64,000 nucleotides of DNA from Bordetella genomosp. 4 (GTDB lineage: Bacteria; Pseudomonadota; Gammaproteobacteria; Burkholderiales; Burkholderiaceae_B). The translations under genes and the position numbers were made by a program. Location: NCBI RefSeq assembly GCF_002261185.1, contig NZ_NEVQ01000001.1:124001-188000 (forward strand), in the 5' to 3' direction. Below the pieces are notes generated by a model. It worked only from the letters and a program-made list of their open reading frames with translations, was not told the origin of the DNA and searched no databases. Positions 34,720 to 53,276 of the stretch are shown here, in pieces (positions within the stretch are counted from its first letter, which is position 1; each line of letters opens with the position of its first letter).

Positions 34720-34820
34720 GGGCACATGATAGCCATCTTTGCCCGTGCAACAGCCAAGCAGCGCGCGACGGCCTATGGCCGAGACGTATTGCCCGCGATT
34801 GGGTGGGTTCAGCTGGCACA

Positions 34821-34963
34821 TCTTCTCTCATCCGGACTGTGACCGTCGGCCCTGGAATCGCACCAGATCTGCTGACCCCGGCTGTCATGAGACAGACCGG
34901 GCGCTCGCGGGCTTGCCAAGTGTGGCTTACCGCCGGTGGGGAGTTTCGCCCCGCCCTGAAGAC
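34821..34963 (-). ncRNA. FMN riboswitch (RFN element)
   Basis: On the minus strand the conserved RFN landmarks occur in order. The 5' side reads GGGGCGAAACTCCCCACCGG then CGGT (34927-34952). It is followed by a variable stem with AAGCCCGCGAGC (34903-34914 region), GGTGCGATTCCAGGGCCGAC (34845-34864) and the 3' closing CAGTCCGGATGAGAGAAGA (34821-34839). These match the FMN aptamer upstream of riboflavin genes. It lies about 140 nt ahead of ribB. Confidence 0.96.
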
Positions 34964-35006
34964 GTACTGCTATGCCGCAACACGCGGCACGGAGGACATT
35001 GTACGC

Positions 35007-38062: not shown

Positions 38063-38087
38063 TGGCGTAGGCTTTCGCTGTTAACAC

Positions 38088-38219
38088 GTCGCGGGCGGTT
38101 GCCATGGGCCATGCTGGCCTAATCGCCGCGACTCGGCCCATGACCAGGGGCCTCGGCCCGCTTCGCGGGCTAAATCGCGGCTCAAAAGGCCAGCATGGCC
38201 CATGGCAACCGCCCGCGAC
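38088..38219. repeat. Structured intergenic element A (long inverted repeat with branched core)
   Basis: Perfect 33-bp arms at 38088-38120 and 38187-38219 enclose 66 bp. Nested stems are GCCGCGA/TCGCGGC (38125-38131 with 38175-38181), GGCCC/GGGCC (38135-38139 with 38148-38152) and GCCCGC/GCGGGC (38156-38161 with 38165-38170). Topology and core sequence match the element at 50931-51063, with compensatory stem changes. It lies just downstream of the acetolactate synthase gene. Confidence 0.85.
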
Positions 38220-38320
38220 TCACAGTCATGGCATGCCACCGCAGTCCCTCACCACAACCAGGCCGTCATTCAAAGCACGACCCACCGCATCAAAGCATCC
38301 GCAGCCTGCAGACATTGCGA

Positions 38321-38538
38321 GCCGGCGTTCGTCGCGTATAGGCGCTGCCGGCCCGTAGAGCCCGCCGAACCAGCCTTGTCAGGCGGGGGGCAGTCGGCTG
38401 GGCATGTCTGAGCGCAGCGCAGCGGAGCGAGTTTGCCCAGCCGCCCCGCCTGGCAAGGCTGGTGAAGGGCAGTCTGGCTGCGCAGGCGGCCAGACCGGGC
38501 GATAGGGCCGGCAGCGCCTATACGCGACGAACACCGGC
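38321..38538. repeat. Structured intergenic element C (long inverted repeat with nested stems)
   Basis: Arms of 34 bp at 38321-38354 and 38505-38538 pair with a single mismatch (38326 against 38533). Inside, 38370-38388 plus 38395-38404 pair with 38434-38462 around a 6-nt bulge (38389-38394), and GTCTGGC/GCCAGAC (38472-38478 with 38488-38494) forms a small hairpin. The arm sequence resembles that of element B at about 25 of 34 positions. The core differs from elements A and B. Confidence 0.8.
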
Positions 38539-38623
38539 GCCTAAAGAACTCAGTACGATGAGTCGAGCCCAGGGGCAAGGGTAAAAAATCTCAACGCACC
38601 CGTACTGACATCCCCCCCACCTA

Positions 38624-40060
38624 TCAATCGTGCTTGATAGAAATCGTCTTCAGCACCGTAAACCCATACAGCGCCTCAAAGCCCTTCTCACGCCCGTGCC
38701 CGCTGGCCTTCACACCACCGAACGGCAGTTCGATGCCGCCCCCCGCTCCGTAGTTGTTGATAAATACCTGCCCGCTGCGCACCTTGCGAGCGATACGCAG
38801 TTGGCGCGCGCCATCCCGAGTCCAGACACTAGCGGCCAGGCCGTATTCCGTGGCGTTAGCAATACGCACTGCATCGGCCTCATCATCGAACGGCATGGCT
38901 GCCAACACCGGACCGAAGACTTCCTCTTGTGCCAGACGATGATCGACCGGCACATCGCGCAGCAGCGTCGGAGCCTGGTAGTAGCCTTCAGCGGGCGCAC
39001 CATCGGCGACCTTGCCCTGCGCAGCGGTAGCGATGCCGTCCTGCGCGGCGGCCTTGAGAAAGCCTTGCACACGTTCCTGCTGCGTTTTACGAATCAACGG
39101 ACCGCAATCCAAGTCCATCGTCGCGGGACCCGTACGCAGCGCCGAAAACGCCTGAGACAAGCGTTCGAGCACACGATCGTAGGCACTGCGTTCAATCAGC
39201 AAACGGCTGCCTGCCGAGCACGTTTGTCCCGAGTTCTGCACAATGGCATTCACAGCCACGGGAATCAATGCATCGATATCCGCGTCGCCGAACACGATCT
39301 GCGGTGACTTGCCGCCCAGCTCCAGCGTCACCGGAACATGGCGTTCCGCAGCGACCTGGGTGACCAGCACGCCGATGCGAGGCGAGCCCGTGAACGAGAT
39401 GTGATCAATGCCCGGGTGGCGCGTCAACGCATCGCCTGCCTCATGACCGTAGCCCGTGACGATATTGATCGCACCCGGCGGGAACCCCACGTCGGCGGCC
39501 AGCTCAGCCAGGCGCAGCAGCGACAGGCAGGCGTCTTCAGCGGGTTTGACGACGCAGGCATTGCCCGCTGCCAGTGCACCGCCCACGCTGCGGCCGAAAA
39601 TCTGCAGCGGGTAGTTCCACGGGACCACGTGGCCCGTCACGCCATGCGGCTCGCGCAGCGTCAGTACGGTATAGCCGTTTTGATAGGGCAAGGTTTCGCC
39701 GTGCAGCTTGTCTGCCGCACCGCCGTAGTACTCGAAATAGCGCGCCACAGCCGTGACGTCGGCACGGGCTTGTTTGGTGGGCTTGCCGCAATCGCGCGAT
39801 TCGATCTCGGTCAGTTCGTCGATGTGATCGAGGATCTTCAGCGACAGTTTCAGCATCAGCCGGCCGCGTTCGGCTGCGGTGAGTTTGCCCCAGGCGCCTT
39901 CGTCGTAGGCCTTGCGGGCGGCGCGTACGGCGACGTCGATGTCGGCGGCATTGCCGCGTGCGATGGCGTCGTATTCCTGCCCCGTAGAGGGATCGATGAC
40001 GGGAATGGTTTCGCCCGAGAGACCCGGTACGGAACGGTTATCAATGAAATGCTGCTTCAT
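38624..40060 (-). CDS. NAD(P)-dependent aldehyde dehydrogenase
   Basis: This 478-residue enzyme oxidises an aldehyde to the acid. Catalytic Cys281 in NSGQTCSAGSRLL and general base Glu247 in TLELGGKSPQ are present, as are the NAD-binding VPWNYPLQIF and the C-terminal PFGGVKASGHGREKG. It is the last gene of a minus-strand unit, 57 bp after an SDR dehydrogenase, so an alcohol-aldehyde-acid sequence is plausible for the cargo of the ABC importer upstream. Betaine-type, gamma-aminobutyraldehyde-type and other substrates cannot be separated by eye. Confidence 0.92.
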   Translation of the reverse strand: MKQHFIDNRSVPGLSGETIPVIDPSTGQEYDAIARGNAADIDVAVRAARKAYDEGAWGKLTAAERGRLMLKLSLKILDHIDELTEIESRDCGKPTKQARADVTAVARYFEYYGGAADKLHGETLPYQNGYTVLTLREPHGVTGHVVPWNYPLQIFGRSVGGALAAGNACVVKPAEDACLSLLRLAELAADVGFPPGAINIVTGYGHEAGDALTRHPGIDHISFTGSPRIGVLVTQVAAERHVPVTLELGGKSPQIVFGDADIDALIPVAVNAIVQNSGQTCSAGSRLLIERSAYDRVLERLSQAFSALRTGPATMDLDCGPLIRKTQQERVQGFLKAAAQDGIATAAQGKVADGAPAEGYYQAPTLLRDVPVDHRLAQEEVFGPVLAAMPFDDEADAVRIANATEYGLAASVWTRDGARQLRIARKVRSGQVFINNYGAGGGIELPFGGVKASGHGREKGFEALYGFTVLKTISIKHD

Positions 40061-40117
40061 GCCTGTGAACCTCTAGTGTGTCGTTGCAGAAAATGCCGGC
40101 GGGTGGATGCCGGGCAG

Positions 40118-40909
40118 CTAAAACAAAATGGACAAACCCCCGTCCACCGCCAGCACCTGGCCGTTGATGTACGAGGCGGCAGGCGATGCCAGGAATACGG
40201 CAGCGCCGGCGATTTCTTCGGGTTGGCCCCAGCGTCCGGTCGGATTGCGGGCGCAGATGCGTTCGTTGACTGCAGGGTCCGCGACCATGGCAGCATTGGT
40301 TTCGGTAGCAAAGGTCCCAGGAGCGATGGCGTTGCTGGTGATGCCCAGCGGCCCGAACTCGACGGCCAACGCGCGCATCATGCCGGTCAGTCCTTGCTTG
40401 GCCGCAGGATAGACGGCGTCGCCGGGACGAGCCAATTCGCCGGCTACTGATGTGATGGTGATAAGGCGCCCCGAACCCTGGCGCACCATGCGTTCGGCAG
40501 CGAGCTTGGCCAGCACCATGCCAGCGACCAGATCGGTATCGATCAAGGCGCGAATTTCCGCTGCGGTAATGGCTTGCAGCGTCTTGCGGTTACGGGCGCC
40601 GACGTTGTTGACCAGGATGTCGAGGCGGCCATGTTCGCGGTCGATACGGTCGAATGCGTCGGCGACGGCTTCGTCATCAGACACATCAAACGGCAGCGCG
40701 GATGCGGCCAGGCCTTGTTCGCGCAGCGTATGCGCCGCGGCCTCGGTGGCGTCGGCGCTGCGGCCATTGATGAGGACATGCGCGCCGCTACCCGCCATGG
40801 CGCGCGCCATGCACAGGCCCAGACCGCGCGCCGATCCCGTGATCAGGGCGACTTGGCCGGCCAGCGAAAAGCGCTGTAGATAAGCTTGCGAAGCAGTCGG
40901 GTTAGTCAT
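40118..40909 (-). CDS. Short-chain dehydrogenase/reductase
   Basis: This 263-residue classical SDR has the cofactor motif TGSARGLG (residues 24-31), NNVG at about 101-104 and the catalytic Ser154, Tyr167 and Lys171 (YPAAK). It resembles gluconate 5-dehydrogenase-type or 3-oxoacyl-ACP reductase-like SDRs. It lies 13 bp after the ABC permease gene and upstream of the aldehyde dehydrogenase, forming one operon. Substrate is presumed to derive from the imported compound. Confidence 0.91.
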   Translation of the reverse strand: MTNPTASQAYLQRFSLAGQVALITGSARGLGLCMARAMAGSGAHVLINGRSADATEAAAHTLREQGLAASALPFDVSDDEAVADAFDRIDREHGRLDILVNNVGARNRKTLQAITAAEIRALIDTDLVAGMVLAKLAAERMVRQGSGRLITITSVAGELARPGDAVYPAAKQGLTGMMRALAVEFGPLGITSNAIAPGTFATETNAAMVADPAVNERICARNPTGRWGQPEEIAGAAVFLASPAASYINGQVLAVDGGLSILF

Positions 40910-40922
40910 GGCTGGATATCAA

Positions 40923-41774
40923 TCAATCGCGGAACTCGGGTGCCCAATGCAACAGTCTGCGCTCAATCCACGTCACAGCATAGACTAACGCAATACCGAC
41001 GAGGGAAAGCAAGGTGACTGCGGCAAACATGTCGGTCGCGTTCAGCGTGGCCAAGGCAGTGACCATGAGATAGCCCATGCCGGTGGTGGATCCAACGAAT
41101 TCGGCCAGTACGACGCCGATGAGCGCAAAGCTGATGGCGTTGGGCAACGCGGCAAAGGTCCAAGCGGCGGCCGTGGGGACGCGTACGCGCCACAGGATCT
41201 GGCGCGGCGAGCCGCCCAGCGTGCGACAGAAATCGACGAGTTCGCGTTCGACGCTGCGTCCCCCTTTGTAGGTGTTGAAGAACACCAGGAAGAACACCAC
41301 GAACCACGATGTCACGACTTTGGAGGCCAGGCCCAAGCCGAAAAACATCGTGATCAGCGGAACAAATGCAATGCGCGGCATGGAGTTGAACGCCACGATA
41401 AAAGGATTGAACACATCCGCCAGCATACGGCTGCGGCTGAGCACCATCCCTACGAGGAATCCGCTGCCCACGCCGACGACCAGGCCCACCAGGGTGGCTT
41501 GCAAGGTCAGCCACAGGTGCGGCCAGACGGACCGCGGTCCCGGTTGCAGCCATTCCCACAACCGCACGGCGATGCGCGACGGTTGGCTGATAAAAAATGG
41601 GTCAAAGATGGTGTTCTGCGCGAACCAGGGAATGCGAGTCAGGATTTCCCAGCCGCCGATGATGATGGCCAGGATCAGGATTTGCCACGCGGTGATGCGC
41701 AGCCGGCGTTGTACCTGGGCTCGCCGGTCTTCGCGCAGTTGGTCTTGCAAGGTGGAAACGTCGGAAGCAGTCAT
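40923..41774 (-). CDS. ABC transporter permease (SsuC-like)
   Basis: This 283-residue inner-membrane permease of the nitrate/sulfonate/taurine class has about six helices, the FNSMPRIAFVPLITMFFGLG segment and the EAA-type loop VERELVDFCRTLGGSPRQIL near residues 165-190. It has a polar, charged N-terminus (about 25 residues) and lies 14 bp after the ATPase gene and 13 bp before the SDR. It completes the import channel of this operon. Confidence 0.92.
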   Translation of the reverse strand: MTASDVSTLQDQLREDRRAQVQRRLRITAWQILILAIIIGGWEILTRIPWFAQNTIFDPFFISQPSRIAVRLWEWLQPGPRSVWPHLWLTLQATLVGLVVGVGSGFLVGMVLSRSRMLADVFNPFIVAFNSMPRIAFVPLITMFFGLGLASKVVTSWFVVFFLVFFNTYKGGRSVERELVDFCRTLGGSPRQILWRVRVPTAAAWTFAALPNAISFALIGVVLAEFVGSTTGMGYLMVTALATLNATDMFAAVTLLSLVGIALVYAVTWIERRLLHWAPEFRD

Positions 41775-41788
41775 GGATATCAGAACGC

Positions 41789-42559
41789 TCAGGCAGCCGT
41801 ACGGAATTGTTCGCCGAGCACGCTCCAGAGGCTTTGCACGTGAGAGACAAACTGCGGGGTTTCACGCAACACAAAAACATCGCGCGGATGCGGGATCTGA
41901 ATGCGCTCATCGAGCAGGACGCGGCTGGGCGGCCCCGACAGCACGACGACGCGATCCGAGAGCGTGATGGCTTCGTCGAGATCATGAGTGACCATGACGA
42001 CGGTTTGGCCGAGCTTGCGCCAGATCTCGATGAGCTCACGATGCAAGTGCGTTTTGGTATGCGTGTCCAAGGCACCGAAGGGCTCGTCGAGCAACAGGAT
42101 ACGAGGCTCGACGGCCAGGCTCATCAACAGCGCAACGCGGCGGCGCATGCCGCCCGACAACTGGTGAGGATAGGCCTGCGCGAAAGCGCTGAGGTGACCC
42201 AGTTCGAGCAACTCGGCGACGCGGCGGTCGATCTGTGCGACGGGCATGCCCAGGAATTTCAGGCCCAGCGCGACGTTCTTGCGTACGTTGTACCAGGGCA
42301 GCAGCGTGTCTTTCTGGAAGATATAGCCCAGTGCGGGCGGCACCTGTCCGTTGACCGGTGCGCCGGCCACCCGGATGGTGCCGGTGGTGGGGGCCAGAAA
42401 ACCCGCCATCATGTTGAGCAAGGTGCTTTTGCCACAGCCAGAGGGCCCGACGATGGAGACGAATTCGCCTTCGGCAATGGAGAGCGACACATTGCCCACG
42501 GCGTGCACCGTACCGCCGCGTGCCTGATAGGCTTTGCCGACCTCAGTGAGTTCGATCAT
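41789..42559 (-). CDS. ABC transporter ATPase (SsuB-like)
   Basis: This 256-residue nucleotide-binding subunit has Walker A GPSGCGKST, signature LSGGMRRR and Walker B LLLDEPFGALD with the H-loop MVTHDLDEAI. The YIFQKDTLLPWYNV Q-loop is typical of sulfonate/nitrate-class ATPases. It follows the receptor gene by 93 bp and precedes the permease gene by 14 bp. Confidence 0.92.
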   Translation of the reverse strand: MIELTEVGKAYQARGGTVHAVGNVSLSIAEGEFVSIVGPSGCGKSTLLNMMAGFLAPTTGTIRVAGAPVNGQVPPALGYIFQKDTLLPWYNVRKNVALGLKFLGMPVAQIDRRVAELLELGHLSAFAQAYPHQLSGGMRRRVALLMSLAVEPRILLLDEPFGALDTHTKTHLHRELIEIWRKLGQTVVMVTHDLDEAITLSDRVVVLSGPPSRVLLDERIQIPHPRDVFVLRETPQFVSHVQSLWSVLGEQFRTAA

Positions 42560-42652
42560 CCGCAGCCCCCACAGGCGTCACTCTGCGCGCGGAGAAAGAG
42601 CGCATCCCCATCGGGCTGGAGCCCGGCTTCAGTATCCAGATACATCATGAAA

Positions 42653-43720
42653 TCACGACGCCTTGCGGGCTCGCTGGACGAACGACATGTCGACGCAGGT
42701 GGCGTAAGGGACTTTTTTCATTTCCTCGTTCGAGAATTGGCGTCCATCCCCCATGATGGCCGCCATCCGGTTGTAGGCGTCTTCGGTGATGAGGTTGTCT
42801 TTCAGAAAAACGGTTTCTTTGTAGATGCCTAGCGTTTTTTCGATGGCAGGACGGGGAAAGGCGCTCAGGTAATCGTCGTAGATCGCGTCAGTGACGGCCT
42901 GGGCGCTGTTGGCGGTGATGAAGTCCTGCGCCTTGACCAGCGCTGTCACAAAGGCCTGTACGACCTCAGGGCGCTTTTGAATGGTGTCTTGCAGGGTCAA
43001 GGCGGCGATGCCCGGGACGTCGCCCCCCATGAAGGCATTCCATGAGGCTTCGGTGGTGGCGTCGAAGATCGGTACGCCCCAGCCTTCGGCTTGCGCTTGT
43101 TCCATCATGGACATGGTCGCCATGCTGGCCGATATCGAGCCGGTTTTCAGCGCGCCCAGCATGGTGGCCAGGTCCCCCAGGGGGCGAATGTCGACTTGAT
43201 CGGCGATGCCCGCCTGTTGCATCAGGTAGACGGCCATGAGCCAGGTGCTGGACTGCGGTTGTGTCGCGCCCACGCGTTTGCCCGCCAGATCTTTCAGGGT
43301 TTTGATTTTGCCGCTGTCGAAATCCTCACGCCGGACGATGACATTGGCGTAGGTGAGCTTGCGGTCAAAGCCAAAGATCAGGCTGGCGGGCTTGCCTGCG
43401 AGCGTCAATGCCGGCGCGGCGGTCGCAGCGGTGGCGCCAAAGAGGATCTGCCCTGCCGCCAGCATTTGCATGGTGCGAGGACCGCTTTGCGAGTTCAGGT
43501 ATTCGACCTCCAGTCCGCCCTCGCCAAAATAGCCCTGTTTGAAGGCGACGTAAGCAGCGGCAAAGAAAGGATCAATGCTGCCCAGGCCGAATGCGGCTTT
43601 GCCGCGTGCGGTCTGGCTGAACGCCGGGGCGCCGAGCAGGCTCGTTCCAGCGAGCGCGGTGGCGCTGGCAAGAAAATGGCGGCGGGTGTAGTGGCCCGAG
43701 TGCAAAAGGGATCGCTGCAT
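42653..43720 (-). CDS. ABC transporter substrate-binding protein (NMT1/SsuA-like), Tat-type signal
   Basis: This 355-residue periplasmic receptor starts at ATG 43720. The signal has a clear twin-arginine motif (YTRRHFLASATALAG) and a probable cleavage after APAFSQ. The mature domain shows the NMT1-like pattern AAYVAFKQGYFGEGGLEVEY and LAAGQILFGATAATAAP. It is the first gene of an operon with ATPase, permease, SDR and aldehyde dehydrogenase. Ligand is unknown; an alcohol, amine or sulfonate precursor of an aldehyde would fit the enzymes. Confidence 0.9.
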   Translation of the reverse strand: MQRSLLHSGHYTRRHFLASATALAGTSLLGAPAFSQTARGKAAFGLGSIDPFFAAAYVAFKQGYFGEGGLEVEYLNSQSGPRTMQMLAAGQILFGATAATAAPALTLAGKPASLIFGFDRKLTYANVIVRREDFDSGKIKTLKDLAGKRVGATQPQSSTWLMAVYLMQQAGIADQVDIRPLGDLATMLGALKTGSISASMATMSMMEQAQAEGWGVPIFDATTEASWNAFMGGDVPGIAALTLQDTIQKRPEVVQAFVTALVKAQDFITANSAQAVTDAIYDDYLSAFPRPAIEKTLGIYKETVFLKDNLITEDAYNRMAAIMGDGRQFSNEEMKKVPYATCVDMSFVQRARKAS

Positions 43721-43778
43721 TTGTCGTCCTGGAATGTTGTCGTGAACAGCTGTTTGACGACAACGATACTGCAAACGG

Positions 43779-43808
43779 ACAAAGACCGTGGCAAGCCACG
43801 GTCTTTGT
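43779..43808. terminator. Hairpin terminator after topB
   Basis: ACAAAGACCGTGG (43779-43791) and CCACGGTCTTTGT (43796-43808) form a perfect 13-bp stem with a CAAG loop; TTTGTTT or TTTGTCC follows depending on the strand. It lies between topB and the next minus-strand gene and probably ends the topB transcript. The 166-bp gap also holds a TGTGGATAA at 43833-43841. Confidence 0.7.
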
Positions 43809-43886
43809 TTGACGGCAAACGCGTCATCGGGGTGTGGATAACTCGTTTGCCGCAGGAGTTACCTGCTGCGAGCGCGGTGCGCGCCG

Positions 43887-46496
43887 TCAGCCGCTGGTCT
43901 TGGTGGCGGCTTTCTTGGCTGCCGTTTTTTTGACCGCGGCCTTTTTGGGGGCGGCTTTTTTCGCTGCGGTTTTTGTTGCCGTTTTGCTCGCGGTCTTGCT
44001 GGCGGTTTTGCCCGCTGCCTTGGCCGGCGCGCGGCCCGGCTTGGCTGCACGGGGCTCGAATTCGAAGCCGGTTTTGCCGTCCGGTTGGCGGACGAGGAAA
44101 GCTTTGAATTTGCGATTCGTGCGGCTGGAGACAAATCCCTCGAGCAAATCGGTGCGGCCATCGGTCAGCAGCTTGTGCATTTGATCCCGTGAGATCTCTT
44201 GCTGCAAGATGATCTTGCCCGAGCGGAAATCGCAGGTCTTGTCCGGACCGACCGATTTTTCGCACACATAGCTTAGGCCATGTTCGAACACACGCGAGTT
44301 GCATTTAGGGCAGTTGCCGACCGGCGTATGGCCGGAAAAGTCGACGGCCTCGTTGTCTTCTTCGTCTTTTTGGCCGAAGTCGAATTCGAGCTTGTATTCG
44401 TCGCTGATGCGCAGAATGGCGGCAAAAGGCCGGCCCATTTTGCTGATGAAGCCTTGCAAGGGGCCGATCTCGCGCTTGGCGAGCAGCTCTTCGACTTCGG
44501 GCAGCTCAAAGGTGCGCCCGCCAGGGTGCTTGCCGATCGAGAAATCGCATTGGGTGCAAGCATAGCGGCGGTAGTTTTCCTTGACCACGCCGCCGCATCT
44601 CGGGCAGGGAGTCTGCAGCGTGGCATAGTCGCCAGGCACCGTATCGCGTTCATACTCTTTGGCGCGCTTGACGATGATCTGAGTCATCTGCGCGATCTCG
44701 CGCATAAAGGCCTCGCGGCCCAATCCGCCCTGCTCGATCTGCTTGAGCTTGTGTTCCCATTCGCCGGTGAGCTCTGGCGAGGTCAATTCCGTGACGTCCA
44801 ATCCGGACAGCAGCGTCATCAATTGGCGGGCCTTGGCGGTAGGCACCAGGTCGCGGCCTTCGCGGCGCAGATAGCCCTCGCCCAACAGGCCTTCGATGAT
44901 GCCTGCCCGGGTGGCCGGTGTGCCCAGCCCACGCTCGGACATCGCCTCGCGCAGTTCTTCGTCATCCACGAGTTTGCCCGCGCCTTCCATGGCAGACAGC
45001 AGTGTGGCTTCGTTGTAGCGGGCCGGCGGCTTGGTCGACAGGCCGATTGCCTCGACGTCCTCGGTGCGGACGGTTTCGTTGTCGGCCACGGGAACCAGGT
45101 TGGCGTCTTCGCCTTGGGCTTCTTTGCCATAGACGGTCAGCCAGCCCGGGGCGACCAGCACCTTGCCCTCGGTCTTGAAGCGATGGCCCTGGACTTCGGT
45201 GATGCGGGTGGTGACGCGGTATTCGGCTGCCGGGAAAAACACGGCCAGGAAGCGCTTGAGTACCAGGTCGTAGAGTTTGCCTTCGGCTTCGCTGAGATCA
45301 TGGGGAATCTGCAGCGTGGGGATGATGGCAAAGTGATCCGACACCTTTTTGTTGTCGAAGATCCGGCGATTGGGCTTGATCCAGTTTTGCGTGACCACGG
45401 TGTCGGCGTGGCGCGACAGCTGCCCCACGGCGTTGGAGCCGCCCTTGGCCAGCGCCTGCATGGTGTCGCGCACCGTGCCGAGATAGTCTTCGGGCAGATA
45501 GCGCGAATCGGTACGCGGGTAGGTCAAGGCCTTGTGGCGTTCGTACAGCGTCTGGGCCAGCGCCAGCGTGGTCTTGGCCGAGAAACCGAAACGGCCGTTG
45601 GCCTCACGCTGCAACGACGTCAGGTCGTACAGGGCTGGCGACATCTGGGTCGAGGGCTTGGATTCCTCGGTGACGCTGCCAGGCTGCTCGCGGCAAGCCG
45701 CTACGACGCTCTGGGCGGCGGCCTGTGACCAGAGGCGCGATTCGCGTTTTTCGGGGTCGCGCTCGTCTTTCTTGAAGTCCGGATCGATCCAGCGGCCCTG
45801 GTACAGGCCCGCGGCGGCGACAAAAGTGGCGTGGACTTCCCAGTAGTCGCGCGGCACGAAACTGCGGATCCGCTCCTCGCGCTCGGCGACGATAGCCAGC
45901 GTCGGGGTCTGGACACGGCCCACGGGGGTTTTGAAGAAGCCGCCGTCCTTGCTGTTGAAGGCCGTCATGGCGCGGGTGCCATTGATGCCCACCAGCCAGT
46001 CGGCCTCGGCGCGCGAGCGCGCGGCAGCCTCCAGCGGCTTGAGCTGGGCGTCGTCGCGCAGGTTCGAAAAGGCCTCGCGGATGGCGGCCTGAGTCATGGA
46101 CTGCAGCCAGAGCCGCTTAATGGGTTTTTTGACCCCTGCATACTGGATGATGTAGCGAAAGATCAGTTCGCCCTCACGCCCGGCGTCACAGGCGTTGATG
46201 AGGCTGTCCACGTCCTTGCGCTTGGCCAGCTTGACCAGCAGTTTGAGGCGTTCGGCCGATTTCTTGTCGGCAGGGCCGAGTTCGAATTCAGGCGGAATGA
46301 CGGGCAGGTGCGTGAAGCTCCACTTTCCCTTGACGGGATCATTGGGCGCGACCAAGCCCAGCAAATGTCCGATACTGGAAGCCAGTACGTAACGTTCGCT
46401 TTCAAAATAGTCACCCTCGCGCGCGAAGCCTCCGAGGGCGCGGGAAATATCAAGGGCGACCGAGGGTTTCTCGGCAATAATCAGCGTTTTGCTCAT
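43887..46496 (-). CDS. topB: DNA topoisomerase III
   Basis: This 869-residue type IA topoisomerase decatenates DNA. The N-terminal TOPRIM starts MSKTLIIAEKPSVALDI and includes DAGREGELIFRYIIQ. The catalytic tyrosine is Tyr326 in LTYPRTDSRYLPEDY. C-terminal four-Cys motifs (CPRCGG...CTQC and CPKCNS) suggest zinc-ribbon modules. The last 50-60 residues are an Ala/Lys-rich tail with repeated KKAA/KTAAKK units, resembling histone H1-like proteins, probably a nonspecific DNA-binding extension. It is divergent from the large fused membrane protein gene. Confidence 0.95.
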   Translation of the reverse strand: MSKTLIIAEKPSVALDISRALGGFAREGDYFESERYVLASSIGHLLGLVAPNDPVKGKWSFTHLPVIPPEFELGPADKKSAERLKLLVKLAKRKDVDSLINACDAGREGELIFRYIIQYAGVKKPIKRLWLQSMTQAAIREAFSNLRDDAQLKPLEAAARSRAEADWLVGINGTRAMTAFNSKDGGFFKTPVGRVQTPTLAIVAEREERIRSFVPRDYWEVHATFVAAAGLYQGRWIDPDFKKDERDPEKRESRLWSQAAAQSVVAACREQPGSVTEESKPSTQMSPALYDLTSLQREANGRFGFSAKTTLALAQTLYERHKALTYPRTDSRYLPEDYLGTVRDTMQALAKGGSNAVGQLSRHADTVVTQNWIKPNRRIFDNKKVSDHFAIIPTLQIPHDLSEAEGKLYDLVLKRFLAVFFPAAEYRVTTRITEVQGHRFKTEGKVLVAPGWLTVYGKEAQGEDANLVPVADNETVRTEDVEAIGLSTKPPARYNEATLLSAMEGAGKLVDDEELREAMSERGLGTPATRAGIIEGLLGEGYLRREGRDLVPTAKARQLMTLLSGLDVTELTSPELTGEWEHKLKQIEQGGLGREAFMREIAQMTQIIVKRAKEYERDTVPGDYATLQTPCPRCGGVVKENYRRYACTQCDFSIGKHPGGRTFELPEVEELLAKREIGPLQGFISKMGRPFAAILRISDEYKLEFDFGQKDEEDNEAVDFSGHTPVGNCPKCNSRVFEHGLSYVCEKSVGPDKTCDFRSGKIILQQEISRDQMHKLLTDGRTDLLEGFVSSRTNRKFKAFLVRQPDGKTGFEFEPRAAKPGRAPAKAAGKTASKTASKTATKTAAKKAAPKKAAVKKTAAKKAATKTSG

Positions 46497-46558
46497 GGGT
46501 ATCCATTGGCGGTAGACCCGCCGGTGTAGCGCGGATAATACGAGGGGAGATTCGCCGC

Positions 46559-49396
46559 ATGCAAGTCAAGCCGGAAATTAAGGTGGGATCAGAATTGCAC
46601 GCTTGGCGCCAATTTTTGTCTCGCGGCACCCTGTGGCTGGGCATTTGGCTGCTCGGGAGTGCGGTAATTTGCGGGGTGGCGGCGAATTGGGAGGCGCTCT
46701 CGAAAACCCAGCGTTTCGCTGGGGCGCAGGTCTTGTTGGCCGTCTGTGTGGTGGCGGCCGCCTGGTTGGGCTGGCGGCTGCGTGCGGCTGACGGCGCCCG
46801 CCGATACGGGCCCGAGGCCCTGCTGGCGCTCGCGGGGTTGCTGCTGGGAGCGCTTTTGGCCTTGCTGGGGCAGACGTATCAGACGGGGGCCGATACCTGG
46901 GAGCTTTTCGCCTGGTGGGGGGTATTGCTGCTGCCCTGGGCGCTGGTGGCCATGAGTCAGGCAGTTTGGCTGCTGTGGCTGGTGGTCGTCAATGTTGCCA
47001 TGGTGCTCTACGTGCAAGAGGGCAGCATGTTTCTGTGGATTCTGGTGCCTACCCAGCAGATGTTGGCCGTGGCGGTAGTGAATCTGCTGTTCCTGGCCGG
47101 CTGGGAGGCCGCCAGCTGGCGCTGGCGCGCCAGTACGGTACTGGGGCCCAGGGTACTCGTGGCATGGATTCTCGGCCTGCTGGGGATCGCGACGTTTTTT
47201 GATTACGCTCCTCTGTTCGGGCTCGGGTCCAGTGCGGGGTTGCTCTGGATCCTGACGACGCTGGGGCTCGGCTACTACTATCAACATGTGCGCCGTGACC
47301 TGGTCATTCTGGCTTTGCTGGCAGCGGGCGTTATCGGGATGTCGCTACGGGTCGTCGGCGAGTTGCTGGTGGAAGTCGCCAATGATTTCTGGGCCGCATT
47401 GCCCCTGGCGGCCCTGCTGATAGGCGAGGCCGTGATTGCGGCCGGGTGGTTGCGTCGTCTGGCGGCACGGCCGGCGCCGGTGTGGCCGCCGGCGAGAGCA
47501 GCGGTTAGCGATGCGGCGTCACAGGGGCAGACGGTGGCAGCAGCAAGTCATCTGCAAAGCGGATCGGCGGAGGACGCCACGTCGAGGGCGGGGACACCAG
47601 GGTCTGACAGCGCACGTCATGATGCCGGCGCGGCAGCGGGTGATGTGCGCGCGGCCAGTATCAAGGGTGAGCGAGAGGCAGGTATTCAGCACCAGGCGAA
47701 TCCTCCCTGGTATGTGCAGGGGCTGTTGGCCTTGAGCGCATGGCTGGCGACGCTGTTGCTGCTGTTGTTTTTGGTGGCCTCCGAGCTGATTGATTCGGGA
47801 ACAGGAGCGAAGATTACCGGGGTGGCGCTGTGCGCGCTCGCTGTCGGCGGGCTGCGTGTGTCGGCGGGGCTGTTCTGGCGGCAATGCTTGACGGCGATGG
47901 GATTTGCGGGCCAGTTGCTGGTGCTGTTCGGCCTGCTCTACCCCGATTCGTCGGCCTATTTCGAGTCCGGCATGTGGTTCTATGTTCTTGTGCTGGGGGC
48001 TGTGGTGTATGCGCTGGGCGCCGAGACGCTGTTGCGTTTCCTGAGCGCGGGCATGATGGCCACGGCGCTGGCAGGATTGATTGTGCAGTATCTCGTGCCC
48101 GGCTTTTTGCAGTCTGACCGGATGTGGGATTGGCTGGACTACGAGGCCATCGGCGCGACGAGGGTGTGGCTGCCCGTGGCAGTGGCGGGCGCGTGGACGG
48201 CGGCGATTGCGTTTTACCTGGGCTATGCCCCTGCGCTGGGCCTGTTTCGCGCACGGCGGGGCGCGATGCCGGAACCGATTGATAGCCCACAAGGCAGACC
48301 TGCTGTTCGTGACGCCGTGCCCGGTGCGGATAGCACGCCTTGTAATGCACTGGTGCACGGCAGGTTCGAGGCCTTGAAACCGTTGGCCTGGGCGTTCGCC
48401 TTGGCAGTGCAGACCATGGTGTGGCTGGCGGCCGGCGTGTCGCTGATGCGATGGCCGGCCTTGTGGCGTGCAGATGCGTTGGTGGCGCTGATCATGGTCC
48501 TGGGAGTGCTGCTGCCCGTAGCATGCGCATGGGCCGTGCTGTGGCCACGCCGTCACGTCCTGACCTCGGGTGTCGTATGGGGTGTGCCGTTGGGGCTGTT
48601 GGCGTTGGCGCTGTTTTGGTTGCCCAGCCCCGGTGTGGCGTTCGCGTTGGCCTGGATGCTGCTGGGTTTCGGGTTGCGCGAGCTGCGCTTGACGATGGTG
48701 GGCGGGCTCAGCTTGCTGGTGTATCTGCTGGTGTACTACTACCAATTGGAAATCCCGCTGCTGGACAAGGCATTCTGGCTGGGCGGCGCCGCATTGCTGT
48801 TGTTCGCCCTGCGAGCGCTGGTGTATCTGGTGCCCCGCTGGATGAAGACAATCGAATTGCCTGCGGTGACGCGCCCTGCCCCTGTGACATCGGCGTTGCG
48901 CTGGCGCACTGCAGTGGTGTTGGGCGGGCTGATACTGGTGCTGGCGGTGGTCAACCACACGATCTGGCAACGGGAGACCTTGCTCGCCCAGGGGCGGGTT
49001 GTCGTGCTTCAGTTGGCGCCGGTCGATCCGCGTTCGTTGATGCAGGGCGACTACATGGCGCTCAATTTTGCGGTGAGCGATCACTTGAGGCCGGGTTTCG
49101 ATCCCGACGAGGCTGCCAAACAGCCCGCCGACGGCTATGTGGTGTTAGTACCGGACGGAAATGGCGTGGCGCAATGGGTACGGACTCAAGCCGGCGCGCA
49201 ACCTGTGACGGGTAACGAAATTGCATTGCGCTATCGCATCCGTGATCGCGACGTGCGTATTGTCACGAACGCGTATTTCTTTCCGGAAGGCCAGGCCGAG
49301 CGCTATGCACAGGCGCGTTATGGCGAAATACGAGTGGGGGATGACGGTACGGGACTGCTGGTGCGTATGCTGGGAGAAAATCGTCAGCCGCTATAA
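46559..49396 (+). CDS. Large fused membrane protein (DUF2157 + DUF4401 + GDYXXLXY domains)
   Basis: This 945-residue protein has about twenty predicted membrane helices. The N-terminal part (about 1-305) resembles DUF2157 ([16 protein letters not shown]). A hydrophilic, low-complexity linker of about 75 residues follows (about 305-381, rich in Ala, Gly, Ser, Asp and Arg). A second membrane region resembles DUF4401 (about 381-800). The C-terminal soluble domain carries [13 protein letters not shown] near residue 828, the defining GDYXXLXY motif. These domains are commonly separate adjacent genes. Function is unknown; an envelope or stress role has been suggested only by context in other bacteria. 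Its end overlaps the convergent gluQ gene by 6 bp. Confidence 0.85.
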
Positions 49397-50266
49397 CGGA
49401 AAGCGCCGGCCCCATTGCGGGATCGCCTGGGCAAGAAAGATTTCCGGTGTGCCTGCAGCGATGGGCGCAAAGCCCAGCGCCTGCCAGGCCTGCGCCAGCA
49501 TCGTCAGGGGCCGGGTGATATCCAGCGGCGCCGCGCCATTTTGCTTGGACAATTTCAGGCCGCTGTCGGGGTCGGTGATCAACGGCACATGCATGACACG
49601 CGGAGGTTCGGCGCCCAACAGGCGGGCCAGGATGCGTTGGCGGGCGGTGGAACTGAGCAGGTCCGCGCCGCGCACGATATCGGTGACGCCCTGCTCTGCA
49701 TCGTCCACGACGACTGCCAGTTGATACGCCCACAGCCCGTCTGCACGGCGTAGGACGAAATCGCCCACTGCTTGTGCAACATTTTGCTGCTGGGGGCCCA
49801 GCCAGCGGTCGATAAAGGTTTCGGTGCCGTCGGGCACGCGTAATCGCCAGGCACGCGCCTGGCGGCCTGGCGGCAGGCCGTGACGGCAGGTTCCGGGATA
49901 AGGACGCTCACCGTCCAGTGCAGGCAAGGTTCCTCGCAGCGCCGAGTCCACGATTTCCCGGCGCGTGCAGCCGCAACCGTAGACCAGTCCACGCGCCGCC
50001 AGCGCATCAAAGGCCTGTTGATAAGTGCTGTTGCGTTGAGATTGCCACAGGATATCCCCATCCCAATGCAGGCCCATGGCGCGCAGTTGGCTCATGATGG
50101 TCTCTGCGGCGCCGGGGACGGTGCGAGGCGTGTCGACGTCTTCGATGCGCAGCAGCCAGCGCCCGCCTTGGGCGCGCGCATCCAGCCAGCTGGCCAAGGC
50201 GGCAACGAGCGAGCCCAGGTGCAGGGGCCCGCTGGGACTGGGGGCAAAGCGGCCGACGTAGTGCAC
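49391..50266 (-). CDS. gluQ: Glutamyl-Q tRNA(Asp) synthetase
   Basis: This 291-residue truncated GluRS paralogue attaches glutamate to queuosine of tRNA-Asp. The class I signatures are [11 protein letters not shown] (HIGH-like) and LKLSKQNGA (KMSKS-like); the zinc site is CGCTRRE with YPGTC. The anticodon-binding domain of true GluRS is absent, as expected for the GluQRS (YadB) group. Start is GTG 50266. Smg begins upstream, 3 bp away on the same strand, so the two are probably co-transcribed. Confidence 0.94.
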
Positions 50267-50269
50267 GGC

Positions 50270-50728
50270 TCAGTGGAGCCGGCGTGCACCGTCGTCGTCG
50301 AGCAGCTCTTCCAGGACCAGGTTGTCGATGTCGGCTTCCTGGCTCCAGAGCACCATCAGCGCGATGATTTTGATCTTGGCCAAGGGTACCGGGGTTTCGG
50401 GGGCCGCCAGTGCACGGTCGATGACGATTTCGCGCAAGGGGGCGGGCAGAACGCCGGCGGATTCGAGAAAGGCGATGAAGCCGATGGACTCGGACCCCAG
50501 TTGCCGGTATTCGGAATCAGCGTAGATGCGCGTGCCGGTGCTGGGCACCTGGGCCAGATCAACGCAGCGTTCGGTGGTTTCGGCCAGACCGTATAGCCAA
50601 CCCAGGGCGTCGTCTATGTCGTCGTGCTCGAAGCCGGCCGCGGCGAGGCGTTTGGCCAGGATGTCAGCCGCGGGACAGGCTTGCGGCGTGTAGTAGTTTT
50701 CGAACAAATAAACGAGGATATCGAACAT
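50270..50728 (-). CDS. smg: Smg family protein (DUF494)
   Basis: This 152-residue protein starts at ATG 50728 with MFDILVYLFENYYTPQ, the characteristic Smg start, and ends in the conserved acidic WSQEADIDNLVLEELLDD. Smg is a conserved gammaproteobacterial and betaproteobacterial protein, often near dprA and topA; its biochemical role is not established. The open frame extends upstream past 51000 but through an inverted-repeat element, so that extension is rejected. It lies immediately upstream of gluQ on the same strand. Confidence 0.93.
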   Translation of the reverse strand: MFDILVYLFENYYTPQACPAADILAKRLAAAGFEHDDIDDALGWLYGLAETTERCVDLAQVPSTGTRIYADSEYRQLGSESIGFIAFLESAGVLPAPLREIVIDRALAAPETPVPLAKIKIIALMVLWSQEADIDNLVLEELLDDDGARRLH

Positions 50729-51164
50729 ATGGCGCAAAGTAGTGCCTGTTTGCCCAGTCGGCCCGCATATCGGCAAACCAGCAAACATGAATTTAAATGT
50801 ACGCTGAATTGTCATCGGGGGCAACTTGGGGGGCTGCTGGCCAGGGCTGTCGTCCGGGGGCGTTTCTTTATTGCCACGGTAGTCGCTAAGGCAGAGGATT
50901 AGATATCGCTCCCGGTGGAGTTCTTTAGGCGCCGGGGTCCGTTGTGTAAAGGCCGCACCGGCCCTATCACGCGGGCTCGGCCCCATCCCCAGGGGGCCTC
51001 GGTCCCTGCGGGACTGCCCCGCGCTCAACGGGCCGGTGCGGCCTTTACACAACGGACCCCGGCTCGCAACGATTGCTTGCTACGGTTGGTCGGACCGGCG
51101 GCGATTGTTCGTGCCGGGATCTTGCGTTGCGAGCGATGAGTGTTGTGAGGGATAGTGGCCCGGT
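50729..51164. other. Intergenic region between the TRAP permease and smg genes
   Basis: This 436-bp region has no credible gene. It contains the long inverted-repeat element B at 50931-51063 and a flanking 10-bp inverted repeat GCTCGCAACG/CGTTGCGAGC (51062-51071 with 51125-51134). The 200 bp next to smg include an A/T-rich patch at about 50785-50815 that may be its promoter; no hexamers could be assigned confidently. Confidence 0.8.
50931..51063. repeat. Structured intergenic element B (long inverted repeat with branched core)
   Basis: Perfect 34-bp arms at 50931-50964 and 51030-51063 enclose 65 bp. Nested stems are CGCGGG/CCCGCG (50970-50975 with 51018-51023), GGCCCC/GGGGCC (50979-50984 with 50993-50998) and GTCCC/GGGAC (51002-51006 with 51010-51014). 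The same topology occurs in the element at 38088-38219, including a shared CTCGGCCC and GGCCTCGG core. It lies in the 3' region of the TRAP permease gene. Confidence 0.85.
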
Positions 51165-53198
51165 CTACGTTGCGGGGAGCGCCTTATCTGTTTTTTCGGC
51201 CTTTAGCTGCGCCAGTTGGCGGATGAATACGGGGATGCAGACGGCCAAGCCCACAATGCCGCTGGTGAAGCCCGGAATGATGGTCAGCAGTGCACCGATG
51301 GTGCATAGCCACCGTTCCCATGATTTCATGCCGACCAGCATGTAGCGCGAAAAGGCGGCGGACAGCAATACCAGGCCGATCATGCAGCCTATCAACGTTT
51401 CGAGGAAGGCAAACCACGTGAAACCCTGCACCGAGATCAGCAGCGACGGTGAAAAGACGAATACAAAGGGCACGATCAGTTTGGTAATGCCCAGCCTGAA
51501 GGCGGTGACGCTGGTTCGCAATGGATCGCTGCCCGCCATGCCCGCCGCGGCATAGGCGGCGAGTGCGACAGGTGGAGTGATGTCTGCCAGGATGCCGAAA
51601 TAGAACACGAAAAAGTGCGCGGCAATCGGTTGAACGCCCAGTTGCACCAGGATGGGTGCGGCGATGGCGACCATGATGAGATAGTTGGCGGTGGTGGGCA
51701 CACCGCAGCCCATCAGCACGCACACGATGCCGGTCATGACCAAGGCGGCCATCAAGGTCAAGGTCTGCGTGGATGCCAGGAATTCCGGAATGACGGCATG
51801 CAGACCGCCCGAGATGAACTGGGCTGCCGAGATCACGATGTATGACACCTTGAAGCCCACGCCCGTCAGGGTGACGACGCCGATGACCAGGCCCACTGTG
51901 CCGGCGGCTGCACCGACGGCCAAGGCGTATTTGGCGCCAGTTTCGAAGGAGTCGTACAAGTCCCGCCATTTCAGGCGTTGGAGCGGATTGAGCAAGCCTA
52001 CCAGGATACAACCGGTGATGCCGGCGAACGCAGCCAGATACGGGGTGCGGCCGCTGGCCAATACAGCGATCAGGGCGATGAGTGGCAGCAAGGTTGGCCA
52101 ACGGCGTTTGAACGATTCACGCAGATTGGGCATTTCGTCTTCGCGCAAGCCACGCAGTCCTTCGCGCTTCGCCTCGAAGTGCACCTGCATGAACATGCCA
52201 AAGAAATACAGGAAGGCCGGGCAGATACCGGCCATGATGATCTGTTGGTATGGAATGTCCAGGAACTCGATCATCAGGAAAGCCGCGGCTCCCATGATGG
52301 GTGGCGTGATCTGGCCGCCGGTGCTGGACGCGGCTTCGACGCCTGCAGCGAAGTGGCGCGGGTAGCCGATACGGATCATGGCCGGGATGGTGAGTGATCC
52401 CACCGTGACGGCATTGGCGACAGACGAGCCTGACAGCATGCCGAACATGGCCGAGCCAAAGACGGAAACTTTGGCAGGACCTCCGGCATAACGGCCCGCG
52501 ATGGCGGAAGCGACGTCCAGAAATAATTGCCCCAGGCCGATACGGCTGGCCAGCACGCCGAACAGCACGAAGTGAAAAACGTAGGTAGCGACCACGCCAA
52601 CGGCCACACCATAAATGCCCTGGCTGGTCAGGTACATGTGGTTGACGATTTGCGGCCACGTATTGCCGGCATGCTTGAGCAGTCCAGGAAACCAGGGCCC
52701 GAATGCAGCGTAGGCGAGAAACACCAGCGCGATGATGGGCAAGGGCCAGCCCATGGCGCGGCGCGTGCCCTCCAGCAGGCCGACGATCAAAACCGAACCC
52801 ATGAATACATCCATCGGCAGCGGGTTGCCGACACGGAACGCGAGGTCCTCGAAGATGTACGGGATATACAACACGCTGAAGGCCAGCACGATGGCGATGA
52901 TCCAGTCGTACAACGGCACGCCGCCCGGCGATAGCAGCGTCGAGCGGGGCTCGCGCTGATAATGCGATTTGCTGAAACCGAACACCAGAAAAATCAGGCT
53001 CAGTACAAAGGCCAGATGCACACCCCGGTGCGTGGCCTCGCGCAACAGGCCAAATCCGGCTGTGTAATAGTGAAATATCGACAGCGATACGAGCAGGACC
53101 GACACGATCGCAGTGGCGGTTTTGGCCAAGGGCCGGAAGCGGATTTCGGAATCGAATTTTTCCGCGAGTTGCTGGGTTTTATCGTGATCGATTTCCAT
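51165..53198 (-). CDS. TRAP transporter fused permease (DctQM-type, TAXI-TRAP system)
   Basis: This 677-residue inner-membrane protein combines the small and large TRAP membrane subunits, with about 16 or more helices. The conserved DctM-like segments FGSAMFGMLSGSSVANAVTV and SSTGGQITPPIMGAAAFLMI match fused 4TM/12TM permeases paired with TAXI receptors. ATG 53198 (MEIDHDKTQQ) is chosen; TTG 53213 is an alternative. It imports a small organic acid or similar anion using a sodium or proton gradient, with the receptor encoded 78 bp upstream. Confidence 0.93.
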   Translation of the reverse strand: MEIDHDKTQQLAEKFDSEIRFRPLAKTATAIVSVLLVSLSIFHYYTAGFGLLREATHRGVHLAFVLSLIFLVFGFSKSHYQREPRSTLLSPGGVPLYDWIIAIVLAFSVLYIPYIFEDLAFRVGNPLPMDVFMGSVLIVGLLEGTRRAMGWPLPIIALVFLAYAAFGPWFPGLLKHAGNTWPQIVNHMYLTSQGIYGVAVGVVATYVFHFVLFGVLASRIGLGQLFLDVASAIAGRYAGGPAKVSVFGSAMFGMLSGSSVANAVTVGSLTIPAMIRIGYPRHFAAGVEAASSTGGQITPPIMGAAAFLMIEFLDIPYQQIIMAGICPAFLYFFGMFMQVHFEAKREGLRGLREDEMPNLRESFKRRWPTLLPLIALIAVLASGRTPYLAAFAGITGCILVGLLNPLQRLKWRDLYDSFETGAKYALAVGAAAGTVGLVIGVVTLTGVGFKVSYIVISAAQFISGGLHAVIPEFLASTQTLTLMAALVMTGIVCVLMGCGVPTTANYLIMVAIAAPILVQLGVQPIAAHFFVFYFGILADITPPVALAAYAAAGMAGSDPLRTSVTAFRLGITKLIVPFVFVFSPSLLISVQGFTWFAFLETLIGCMIGLVLLSAAFSRYMLVGMKSWERWLCTIGALLTIIPGFTSGIVGLAVCIPVFIRQLAQLKAEKTDKALPAT

Positions 53199-53276
53199 CG
53201 CCAGGCCTATCAAAAGAAACGCAGCGCGCCGGAGGGCGTCCCGGCGCGCTGAGAGAGATACTGCAAGCGGTACGGC

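What the first reader, a model, noticed from the sequence alone, without database searches (positions are those of the whole stretch)
38088..51063. A family of three structured intergenic repeats with covarying arms
Three elements (38088-38219, 38321-38538 and 50931-51063) are each bounded by 33-34-bp inverted repeats. Seen in sequence: the arms of elements B and C are equal in length and identical at about 25 of 34 positions; element A aligns to B at about 21 positions. Yet within each element the two arms still pair, perfectly in A and B and with one mismatch in C. Inter-element divergence with intra-element complementarity is the signature of compensatory evolution or gene conversion of a structure. 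Inference: a repeat family maintained as a stem, perhaps a nonautonomous mobile or REP-like element, a structured 3'-UTR RNA or a protein-binding cruciform. I do not recognise it as a named family.
Basis: partly seen in the sequence, partly recalled or inferred. Interest (0 to 1): 0.8.

Follow-up and report, generated by a model that had tools for sequence, protein, structure and literature searches.

The report
Variable-stem 3'-end RNA repeats of Bordetella
Three hairpins between genes belong to a dispersed family of RNA-like structures in Bordetella whose long stems differ from copy to copy yet still pair, and which probably mark where gene transcripts end.

Summary
The elements are real and belong to a dispersed family. 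Each copy is a stem of about 33 bp, copy-specific in sequence, around a conserved three-way-junction core. Covariation is overwhelming: 99.6% of cells paired against 75.3% shuffled. Stem mismatches are strand-biased: G.U 37 to A.C 5 in the own genome, 23 to 4 in relatives, so one strand, probably RNA, is selected. On that strand a C-rich, G-poor stretch follows the stem in 124 of 125 elements, against 36 of 71 controls; window element B is the exception. Elements favour gene 3' ends and convergent genes; 30 of 31 close pairs point outward. Best reading: a 3'-end RNA hairpin followed by a rut-like loading stretch for Rho. No RAYT gene was found in this genome, and no Rfam match at gathering score. 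The catalogued Bor-1 and Bor-2 families could not be compared. Function is untested.

The parts
38088..38219 (-). Element A (T-type, RNA strand minus): 33-bp arms 38088-38120/38187-38219 around a 66-nt three-way-junction core
38008..38087 (-). RNA 3' flank of A: C-rich, G-poor (28 C, 12 G over 80 nt; 19 C, 5 G at +15..+60), running antisense into the end of the TPP-enzyme gene
38220..38320 (.). 101-bp spacer between the outward-pointing elements A and B; holds their 5' flanks (..GGCATGCCATGACTGTGA on A's RNA strand, ..CAGACATTGCGA on B's)
38321..38538 (+). Element B (C-type, RNA strand plus): 34-bp arms 38321-38354/38505-38538 with one C.A mismatch, around a 150-nt 'type II' core with an additional long inner hairpin
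38539..38618 (+). RNA 3' flank of B: starts GCCTAAAGAACTC; weak C excess over 80 nt (26 C, 18 G) but G exceeds C at +15..+60 (10 C, 14 G), against the family trend
50931..51063 (-). Element C (C-type, RNA strand minus): 34-bp perfect arms 50931-50964/51030-51063, 65-nt core; downstream of and sense with the gene at 51165-53213 (-)
50851..50930 (-). RNA 3' flank of C: starts GCCTAAAGAACTCC; modest C excess (26 C, 18 G over 80 nt; 14 C, 11 G at +15..+60)
36248..38062 (+). Thiamine-pyrophosphate enzyme gene (PF02776/PF00205/PF02775), ending 25 bp before A
38624..40060 (-). Aldehyde dehydrogenase gene (PF00171), convergent, ending 85 bp after B
51165..53213 (-). TRAP transporter DctM gene (PF06808), upstream of C in the sense direction, ending 101 bp before the stem

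Best explanation
The elements are copies of a dispersed, strand-specific RNA structure that acts at the 3' ends of transcripts. Shown by sequence: a stem of about 33 bp (34 in most own copies) that is free in sequence but held to pairing, a conserved three-way-junction core, one preferred strand, location at gene 3' ends, and a weakly folded C-rich, G-poor stretch directly downstream. Inferred: RNA polymerase reads through the hairpin, Rho loads on the C-rich stretch and ends transcription further on, and 3'-5' exonucleases trim the RNA back to the hairpin, which becomes the protected 3' end. An outward-pointing pair between convergent genes would stop both transcripts just before they run antisense into the other gene. 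Also inferred: the stem drifts because only pairing matters, kept in register by selection against unpaired bases on the RNA strand and probably by copying of one arm from the other. How copies spread is unknown.
For: Covariation: own genome, 35 sequences, 99.6% of cells paired against 75.3% shuffled and at most 41.5% slid, covariation score 0.660 against 0.192, 0 of 500 shuffles as high; relatives, 18 sequences, score 0.257 against 0.078, 0 of 500. Strand: G.U 37 to A.C 5 in 51 own elements (p 4e-7), 23 to 4 in 74 relatives' elements (p 3e-4); 45 elements with more G.U against 6 with more A.C (p 1.8e-8). The bias persists inside outward pairs, 21 to 3 over 28 pairs (p 3e-4), where a strand bias of the locus would cancel. 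An inner-stem pair is G.U in 16 of 35 on the same strand. 3' flank: C>G at +15..+60 in 124 of 125 elements, in all four gene contexts, against 36 of 71 control regions just after stop codons without an element; C/G 2.3-2.4 at +20..+60 falling to about 1.1 by +300; mean 70-nt energy -9.9 against -22.5 upstream and -20.9 far downstream; a rut-like pattern (six C spaced 11-13 nt, C/G>=2) in 85 of 126 downstream, 10 of 127 upstream, 20 of 126 far downstream, 1 of 126 antisense. Context: 35 of 95 single or paired loci lie between convergent genes against 6 of 93 control intergenic regions, divergent 9 of 95 against 28 of 93; sense 25 to antisense 10 among co-directional singles. 30 of 31 close pairs point outward. 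No intrinsic-terminator-like or promoter-like site at A, B or C by simple scans; the one terminator-like site lies inside the upstream coding region. PMC7815308 (passages) states that Rho acts from unstructured rut sequence, ends transcription typically 100-200 nt downstream of it, and that such 3' ends are processed by 3'-5' exonucleases.
Against: No transcript data: transcription, Rho dependence and trimming are all inferred. Two of the three window elements have only a weak C excess, and B is the one element of 125 that fails the C>G test. 41 of 126 elements lack the stricter rut-like pattern. The strand bias would also arise if one DNA strand folded alone, since G.T is tolerated there too (general knowledge). 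In relatives, mismatches of other kinds (27) are as many as G.U (23). Orientation relative to the gene is not strict: 10 of 35 co-directional singles are antisense. A 33-bp stem could be cut by RNase III, which would weaken an end-protecting role (general knowledge). Gene contexts rest on my own simple gene calls with the own genome's codon usage.
Confidence: 0.5

Rival explanations
1. Non-autonomous mobile DNA (MITE- or REPIN-like): the elements spread as single-stranded hairpins, and an outward C-type/T-type pair is the two ends of one unit. Gene 3' ends are merely safe landing places. (Compatible with an RNA role gained later, so the odds overlap with the best explanation.)
For: Near-identical copies at different places: composites of about 505-580 bp at 93-94% identity on contigs C9, C4 and C6, and a single element sharing 202-228 bp at 95-98%, whose stem starts 33 bp after the preceding gene. 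28 of 31 close pairs join one C-type with one T-type stem. Of 13 G007 elements, 4 at three loci were matched to own elements by long flanking homology; one further flank match of 206 bp was weak and unclear.
Against: No Y1/RAYT transposase (PF01797) in the own genome, nor in G003 and G007. No match in the plasmid collection for two query elements or in the phage collection for one. Movement alone does not predict the one-sided C-rich flank. At the A/B locus both elements are shared with another species.
Confidence: 0.25
2. Paired changes come mainly from DNA-level copying of one arm from the other during replication (quasi-palindrome correction), with little or no selection on the structure.
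For: In 63 nearest-neighbour stem comparisons two-sided Watson-Crick changes were 86 transitions and 86 transversion-type; the latter cannot pass through G.U.
Against: Copying alone gives no reason for six- to sevenfold more G.U than A.C on one strand, for the conserved core, or for the flank bias. 32 of the differences in the same comparison involve a mismatch, so correction is not immediate.
Confidence: 0.15
3. The structure is a processed small RNA or a binding site for an RNA-binding protein or RNase III; the C-rich flank is incidental.
For: Conserved unpaired core bases (GUWGA/GAUA internal loop in the own genome, CCUG in most second-hairpin loops, mostly GNA in the first) beyond what a protective hairpin needs.
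Against: No promoter-like site at A, B or C in a simple scan. The flank bias is nearly universal, 124 of 125.
Confidence: 0.25

Closest known systems
REP / REPIN / BIME elements (GTAG- and CGTC-tagged; many RAYT-associated)
   Same: Dispersed palindromes downstream of genes, mostly between convergent and co-directional genes, often in opposite-orientation dimers, with G-T pairing suggesting RNA function (PMC3733652, abstract and passages); compensatory changes in the spacer hairpin of REPINs (PMC3116915, passages).
   Different: REPs are 20-40 bp, with stems of 6-9 bp in most GTAG families (up to 13) and 8-9 bp in CGTC families, and near-constant unpaired tags. Here the stem is about 33 bp and variable, the core is the conserved part, no RAYT is found in this genome, and a C-rich 3' flank is attached.
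Rho-dependent terminators whose 3' ends are trimmed back to a hairpin (E. coli trp t/t' is the parallel I recall; not looked up)
   Same: Stable hairpin upstream of an unstructured C-rich, G-poor stretch.
   Different: The cases I recall are individual sites; this would be a dispersed, structurally conserved family supplying the hairpin. Rho action here is inferred only.
Bor-1 and Bor-2 stem-loop families of Bordetella bronchiseptica (PMC2267715)
   Same: Intergenic, structured repeat families in a Bordetella; model lengths 117 and 167 bp, 196 and 17 sequences found (tables seen as passages).
ERIC, YPAL and NEMIS (recalled)
   Same: Long intergenic palindromes that fold in mRNA.
   Different: By recall their stems are sequence-conserved between copies; not compared here.

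Membership tests
REP/REPIN (RAYT-mobilised) | Cognate RAYT (Y1 transposase) in the genome | tested here: not met
   PF01797 at E<=0.001: 0 matches in G000, G003, G007; one each in G001, G002, G004, G005, G006, G008
REP/REPIN (RAYT-mobilised) | Short stem (6-13 bp) with unpaired GTAG or CGTC tag | tested here: not met
   Stems 31-36 bp in 51 own elements, 27-37 in 74 relatives' (my finder required long arms, but every type-I row with R1 in the own genome spans the full model except one cut by a contig end). The letters CGTC occur at many T-type feet, but GTC lies inside the stem
Intrinsic terminator | Hairpin followed at once by a U tract | tested here: not met
   Own 3' flanks start G-Y-C-T-A-A-A-G-A-A-C in consensus; no terminator-like site at A, B or C
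Rho-dependent terminator | C-rich, G-poor unstructured RNA | tested here: met
   124 of 125 elements C>G at +15..+60; mean energy -9.9 against -22.5 upstream. Exception: window element B
Rho-dependent terminator | Termination lost on Rho inhibition | not testable with these tools
   needs transcript data
Structured RNA family | Covariation above shuffled and slid controls | tested here: met
   (shuffles ignore relatedness; the slid control keeps it but favours a structure derived from the same alignment)
Any Rfam 15 family | Match at the gathering score | tested here: not met
   window and six relatives' loci give only an FMN and an SAH riboswitch elsewhere; a permissive scan around A/B gave nine miRNA hits and one antizyme element, all below gathering
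MITE | Target-site duplication and empty site | not tested
   near-identical copies at different places seen; no clean empty-site pair was obtained
Bor-1/Bor-2 (PMC2267715) | Sequence match to their models | not tested
   no consensus in the passages; no named B. bronchiseptica genome was reached

The most novel reading that the evidence does not exclude
A new class of bidirectional insulator: two distinct RNA subtypes, C and T, set back to back between convergent genes. Each is a private, copy-specific long stem on a shared Y-shaped core followed by a Rho loading stretch, so each transcript ends just before entering the opposing gene. The stems diverge from copy to copy because pairing with a partner or with other copies is harmful, so each hairpin pairs only with itself.
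Probability: 0.2. Interest if true: 0.8.

Novelty: new variant of a known kind. Interest (0 to 1): 0.66.

Why it matters
It would be a natural compensatory-evolution experiment: dozens of copies in one genome of one structure whose long stem evolves under pairing alone, in orthologous and paralogous copies. It links a dispersed repeat family to Rho-type 3'-end formation in GC-rich bacteria and gives a testable explanation for how convergent genes are kept apart.

Tried and rejected
REP/RAYT origin: no PF01797 match in this genome. Intrinsic terminator and local promoter: simple scans found none at the elements. Plasmid or phage carriage: no match for the elements queried. attC-like integron sites: considered because recognition there is by structure, dropped on recalled features; no integrase search was run. 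Empty site for the recent single copy (L005): its neighbour gene is only 64-68% identical in 7 relatives and has no match in G007, so no clean empty site was obtained. Orthologous stems as a tree-like record: in G007 the A and B orthologs are the closest and second closest to the own same-type stems (0.73, 0.74), but the C and C20:172861 orthologs are not (0.50, rank 3 of 21; 0.65, rank 11 of 30), so stems saturate or are replaced. A genus-wide MAFFT alignment (A3) seemed to shift arms and was not used for pair counts; a model-fitted one (A2) mixed both strands and was not used. Copy numbers are lower bounds: 150 candidates scored per genome, at most 11 and 3. (10 genomes of genus g2, 0 matches) has no positive control. 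Whether B. pertussis or B. bronchiseptica carry the family is unknown. Literature: the listings of nine searches showed no paper describing this family, and passages of five papers were read (with 81, 80, 82). Only open-licence PMC papers are searched and no supplements were read.
Full report
WHAT WAS CHECKED. The three inverted repeats exist at the given places. B and C left arms agree at 25 of 34 positions, A and B at 20 of 33 with one gap.

A GENOME-WIDE FAMILY. With A or C as DNA query the own genome gives 38 and 39 rows, opposite-strand rows included. Merging these loci (38 segments, 116,431 bases) and searching them for inverted repeats gives 54 elements. Two had no clear orientation and one is cut by a contig end; these were dropped where orientation or full arms were needed. 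A covariance model R1 from 35 type-I elements gives 100 rows on both strands in the own genome; I count 64 distinct places at E<=1e-5 and two weaker ones. In the window only A, B and C are found. Cores are mostly 65-68 nt (type I). Six elements including B have a 150-151-nt type II core, and seven more rows have that length.

ANATOMY. On the RNA strand of own copies: a 5' flank ending mostly in YGA (the last A is invariant), a stem of mostly 34 bp that starts with G in 35 of 35, an internal loop GUWGA/GAUA, a 7-bp inner stem, a first hairpin with a three-base loop (mostly GNA), a second with CCUG in its loop in most copies, then the 3' arm and the consensus GYCTAAAGAAC. Arm length is 31-36 in own copies (42 of 51 are 34) and 27-37 in relatives (58 of 74 are 32-34). 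Arm sequence varies: mean identity between copies 0.56 in the own genome and 0.53 among relatives, while pairing holds.

COVARIATION. On A1 (35 distinct rows) 99.6% of 1818 cells pair, 38 of 52 pairs show changes on both sides, and the covariation score is 0.660 against 0.192 (sd 0.009) shuffled and at most 0.103 slid. On A4 (18 relatives' elements, chosen for equal length) the score is 0.257 against 0.078 (sd 0.008) shuffled and at most 0.044 slid. A1 includes some recent duplicates.

ORTHOLOGS. The aldehyde dehydrogenase gene next to B is found in 9 of 9 genomes of the genus. In G007 the same two genes flank an outward pair. Its first stem differs from A at about a quarter of positions (identity 0.73) and still pairs at all but one base pair, one pair being G.U; its second has B-like arms but a type I core. 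Four of 13 G007 elements at three loci (A/B, C, C20:172861) were matched to own elements by long flanking homology. The C and C20 orthologs are no closer than paralogs. In at least six of the other seven species the slot shows no such pair but different palindromes (read by eye).

WHICH STRAND. Counting stem mismatches on the strand defined by the core: own 51 elements, 1729 pairs, G.U 37, A.C 5, other 4; relatives 74 elements, 2420 pairs, G.U 23, A.C 4, other 27 (identical elements counted once; own elements of unclear orientation or with arms under 31 dropped). Within outward pairs the ratio is 21 to 3 (28 pairs; left members 13 to 0, right members 8 to 3), so a strand bias of the locus does not explain it. 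An inner-stem pair is G.U in 16 of 35 on the same strand. Window element B carries one of the rare A.C mismatches. This points to selection on one strand, most simply as RNA; single-stranded DNA is not excluded.

HOW PAIRED CHANGES ARISE. In 63 nearest-neighbour comparisons (1-6 pair differences) two-sided Watson-Crick changes were 86 transitions and 86 transversion-type; 28 differences involve a wobble and 32 a mismatch. Transversion-type pairs cannot pass through G.U, so copying of one arm from the other probably adds to selection. This is inference.

THE 3' FLANK. At +15..+60 after the stem, C exceeds G in 124 of 125 elements (41 of 41, 26 of 26, 46 of 47 and 11 of 11 in the four gene contexts), against 36 of 71 control regions at +1..+60 after stop codons without an element. 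The exception is window element B, and C is weak. The bias peaks at +20..+60 (C/G 2.3-2.4) and fades to about 1.1 by +300; upstream it is 1.0-1.2. The stretch folds weakly (mean -9.9 kcal/mol per 70 nt against -22.5 upstream and -20.9 far downstream). A rut-like pattern with C/G>=2 is seen in 85 of 126 downstream, 10 of 127 upstream, 20 of 126 far downstream and 1 of 126 antisense. Beyond the first 20 or so bases information content per position is low, so composition rather than sequence seems to be kept.

GENE CONTEXT. By my own codon-usage gene calls: 65 singles, of which 25 lie between co-directional genes in sense, 10 in antisense, 23 between convergent and 7 between divergent genes; 30 pair groups, of which 12 are convergent, 16 co-directional and 2 divergent. 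Control intergenic regions of at least 60 bp without an element in the same stretches: 59 co-directional, 28 divergent, 6 convergent of 93. Elements without a called gene on both sides were left out. Of 31 close pairs, 30 point outward and 28 join one stem with C and one with T at its second base; in two of the other three one partner has C-type features.

DISTRIBUTION AND NAMES. R1 finds the family in 12 of 61 genomes: all 9 of the genus, 3 of 28 from other genera of the family, 0 of 24 from other families of the order. R2 on 268 genomes of the family: 16 with matches at E<=1e-6, in 5 of 43 genera (at most 11 candidates scored per genome). Four hits from genus g56 fold into the same architecture. 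G013's genus: 1 of 6. 2 AU8256, G007 as Bordetella sp. 02P26C-1, G008 and G001 as B. petrii strains, G004 as Bordetella sp. BOR01, G005 as B. genomosp. 7, G018 as Paracandidimonas soli and G014 as Mesopusillimonas faecipullorum; B. ansorpii and B. genomosp. 13 also match the pattern. G002's single contig of 5,287,950 bases fits B. petrii DSM 12804 as I recall it.

SPREAD. Near-identical composites lie at different places, and one single element follows 33 bp after a gene, so copies move or are copied. No Y1 transposase is found in the own genome; two queried elements have no match in the plasmid collection and one none in the phage collection.

KNOWN FAMILIES. No Rfam match at gathering score (permissive scan). 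REPs share location and dimer habit (PMC3733652, abstract and passages) but are short and tagged. REPIN spacers also show compensatory changes (PMC3116915, passages). Bor-1 and Bor-2 are catalogued intergenic stem-loop families of B. bronchiseptica (PMC2267715, passages). Their sequences were not seen, so the possibility that this family was partly catalogued before remains open.

VERDICT. The family, the structure, the strand preference and the 3' flank are shown by sequence. Rho termination, end trimming and insulation of convergent genes are the best-supported inference, not shown. The odds given to the explanations overlap, because mobility, arm copying and an RNA role do not exclude each other.

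Noticed in passing
window 34816-34967 (-): FMN riboswitch, 112.2 bits against a gathering score of 66.2.
   Followed up: no
L116-L119, L121, L122 (A/B slot in other species): Different palindromic repeats of the GGTGTCTGACACC kind fill the same slot in relatives that lack the pair (read by eye); five of these six genomes carry a RAYT-like Y1 gene, G003 does not.
   Followed up: partly
window 38381-38453 (inner hairpin of B): The inner part of the type II core has 75-82% matches in genomes of several other genera of the family, as if another repeat had been taken into the core.
   Followed up: no
contigs C8 end and C6 start of the own genome (L006, L007): The assembly breaks inside the duplicated composite; the elements at both contig ends look like the same copy.
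   Followed up: no
L197:2373-2505 and 2617-2750: The only close pair in tandem (same strand), both T-type; probably a local duplication.
   Followed up: no
L164:2095-2218 (-): SAH riboswitch close to an outward pair in G006.
   Followed up: no
own contig C7:61231-61382: A member with 42-bp arms and an unrelated core but C-type flanks, paired with a T-type element.
   Followed up: no
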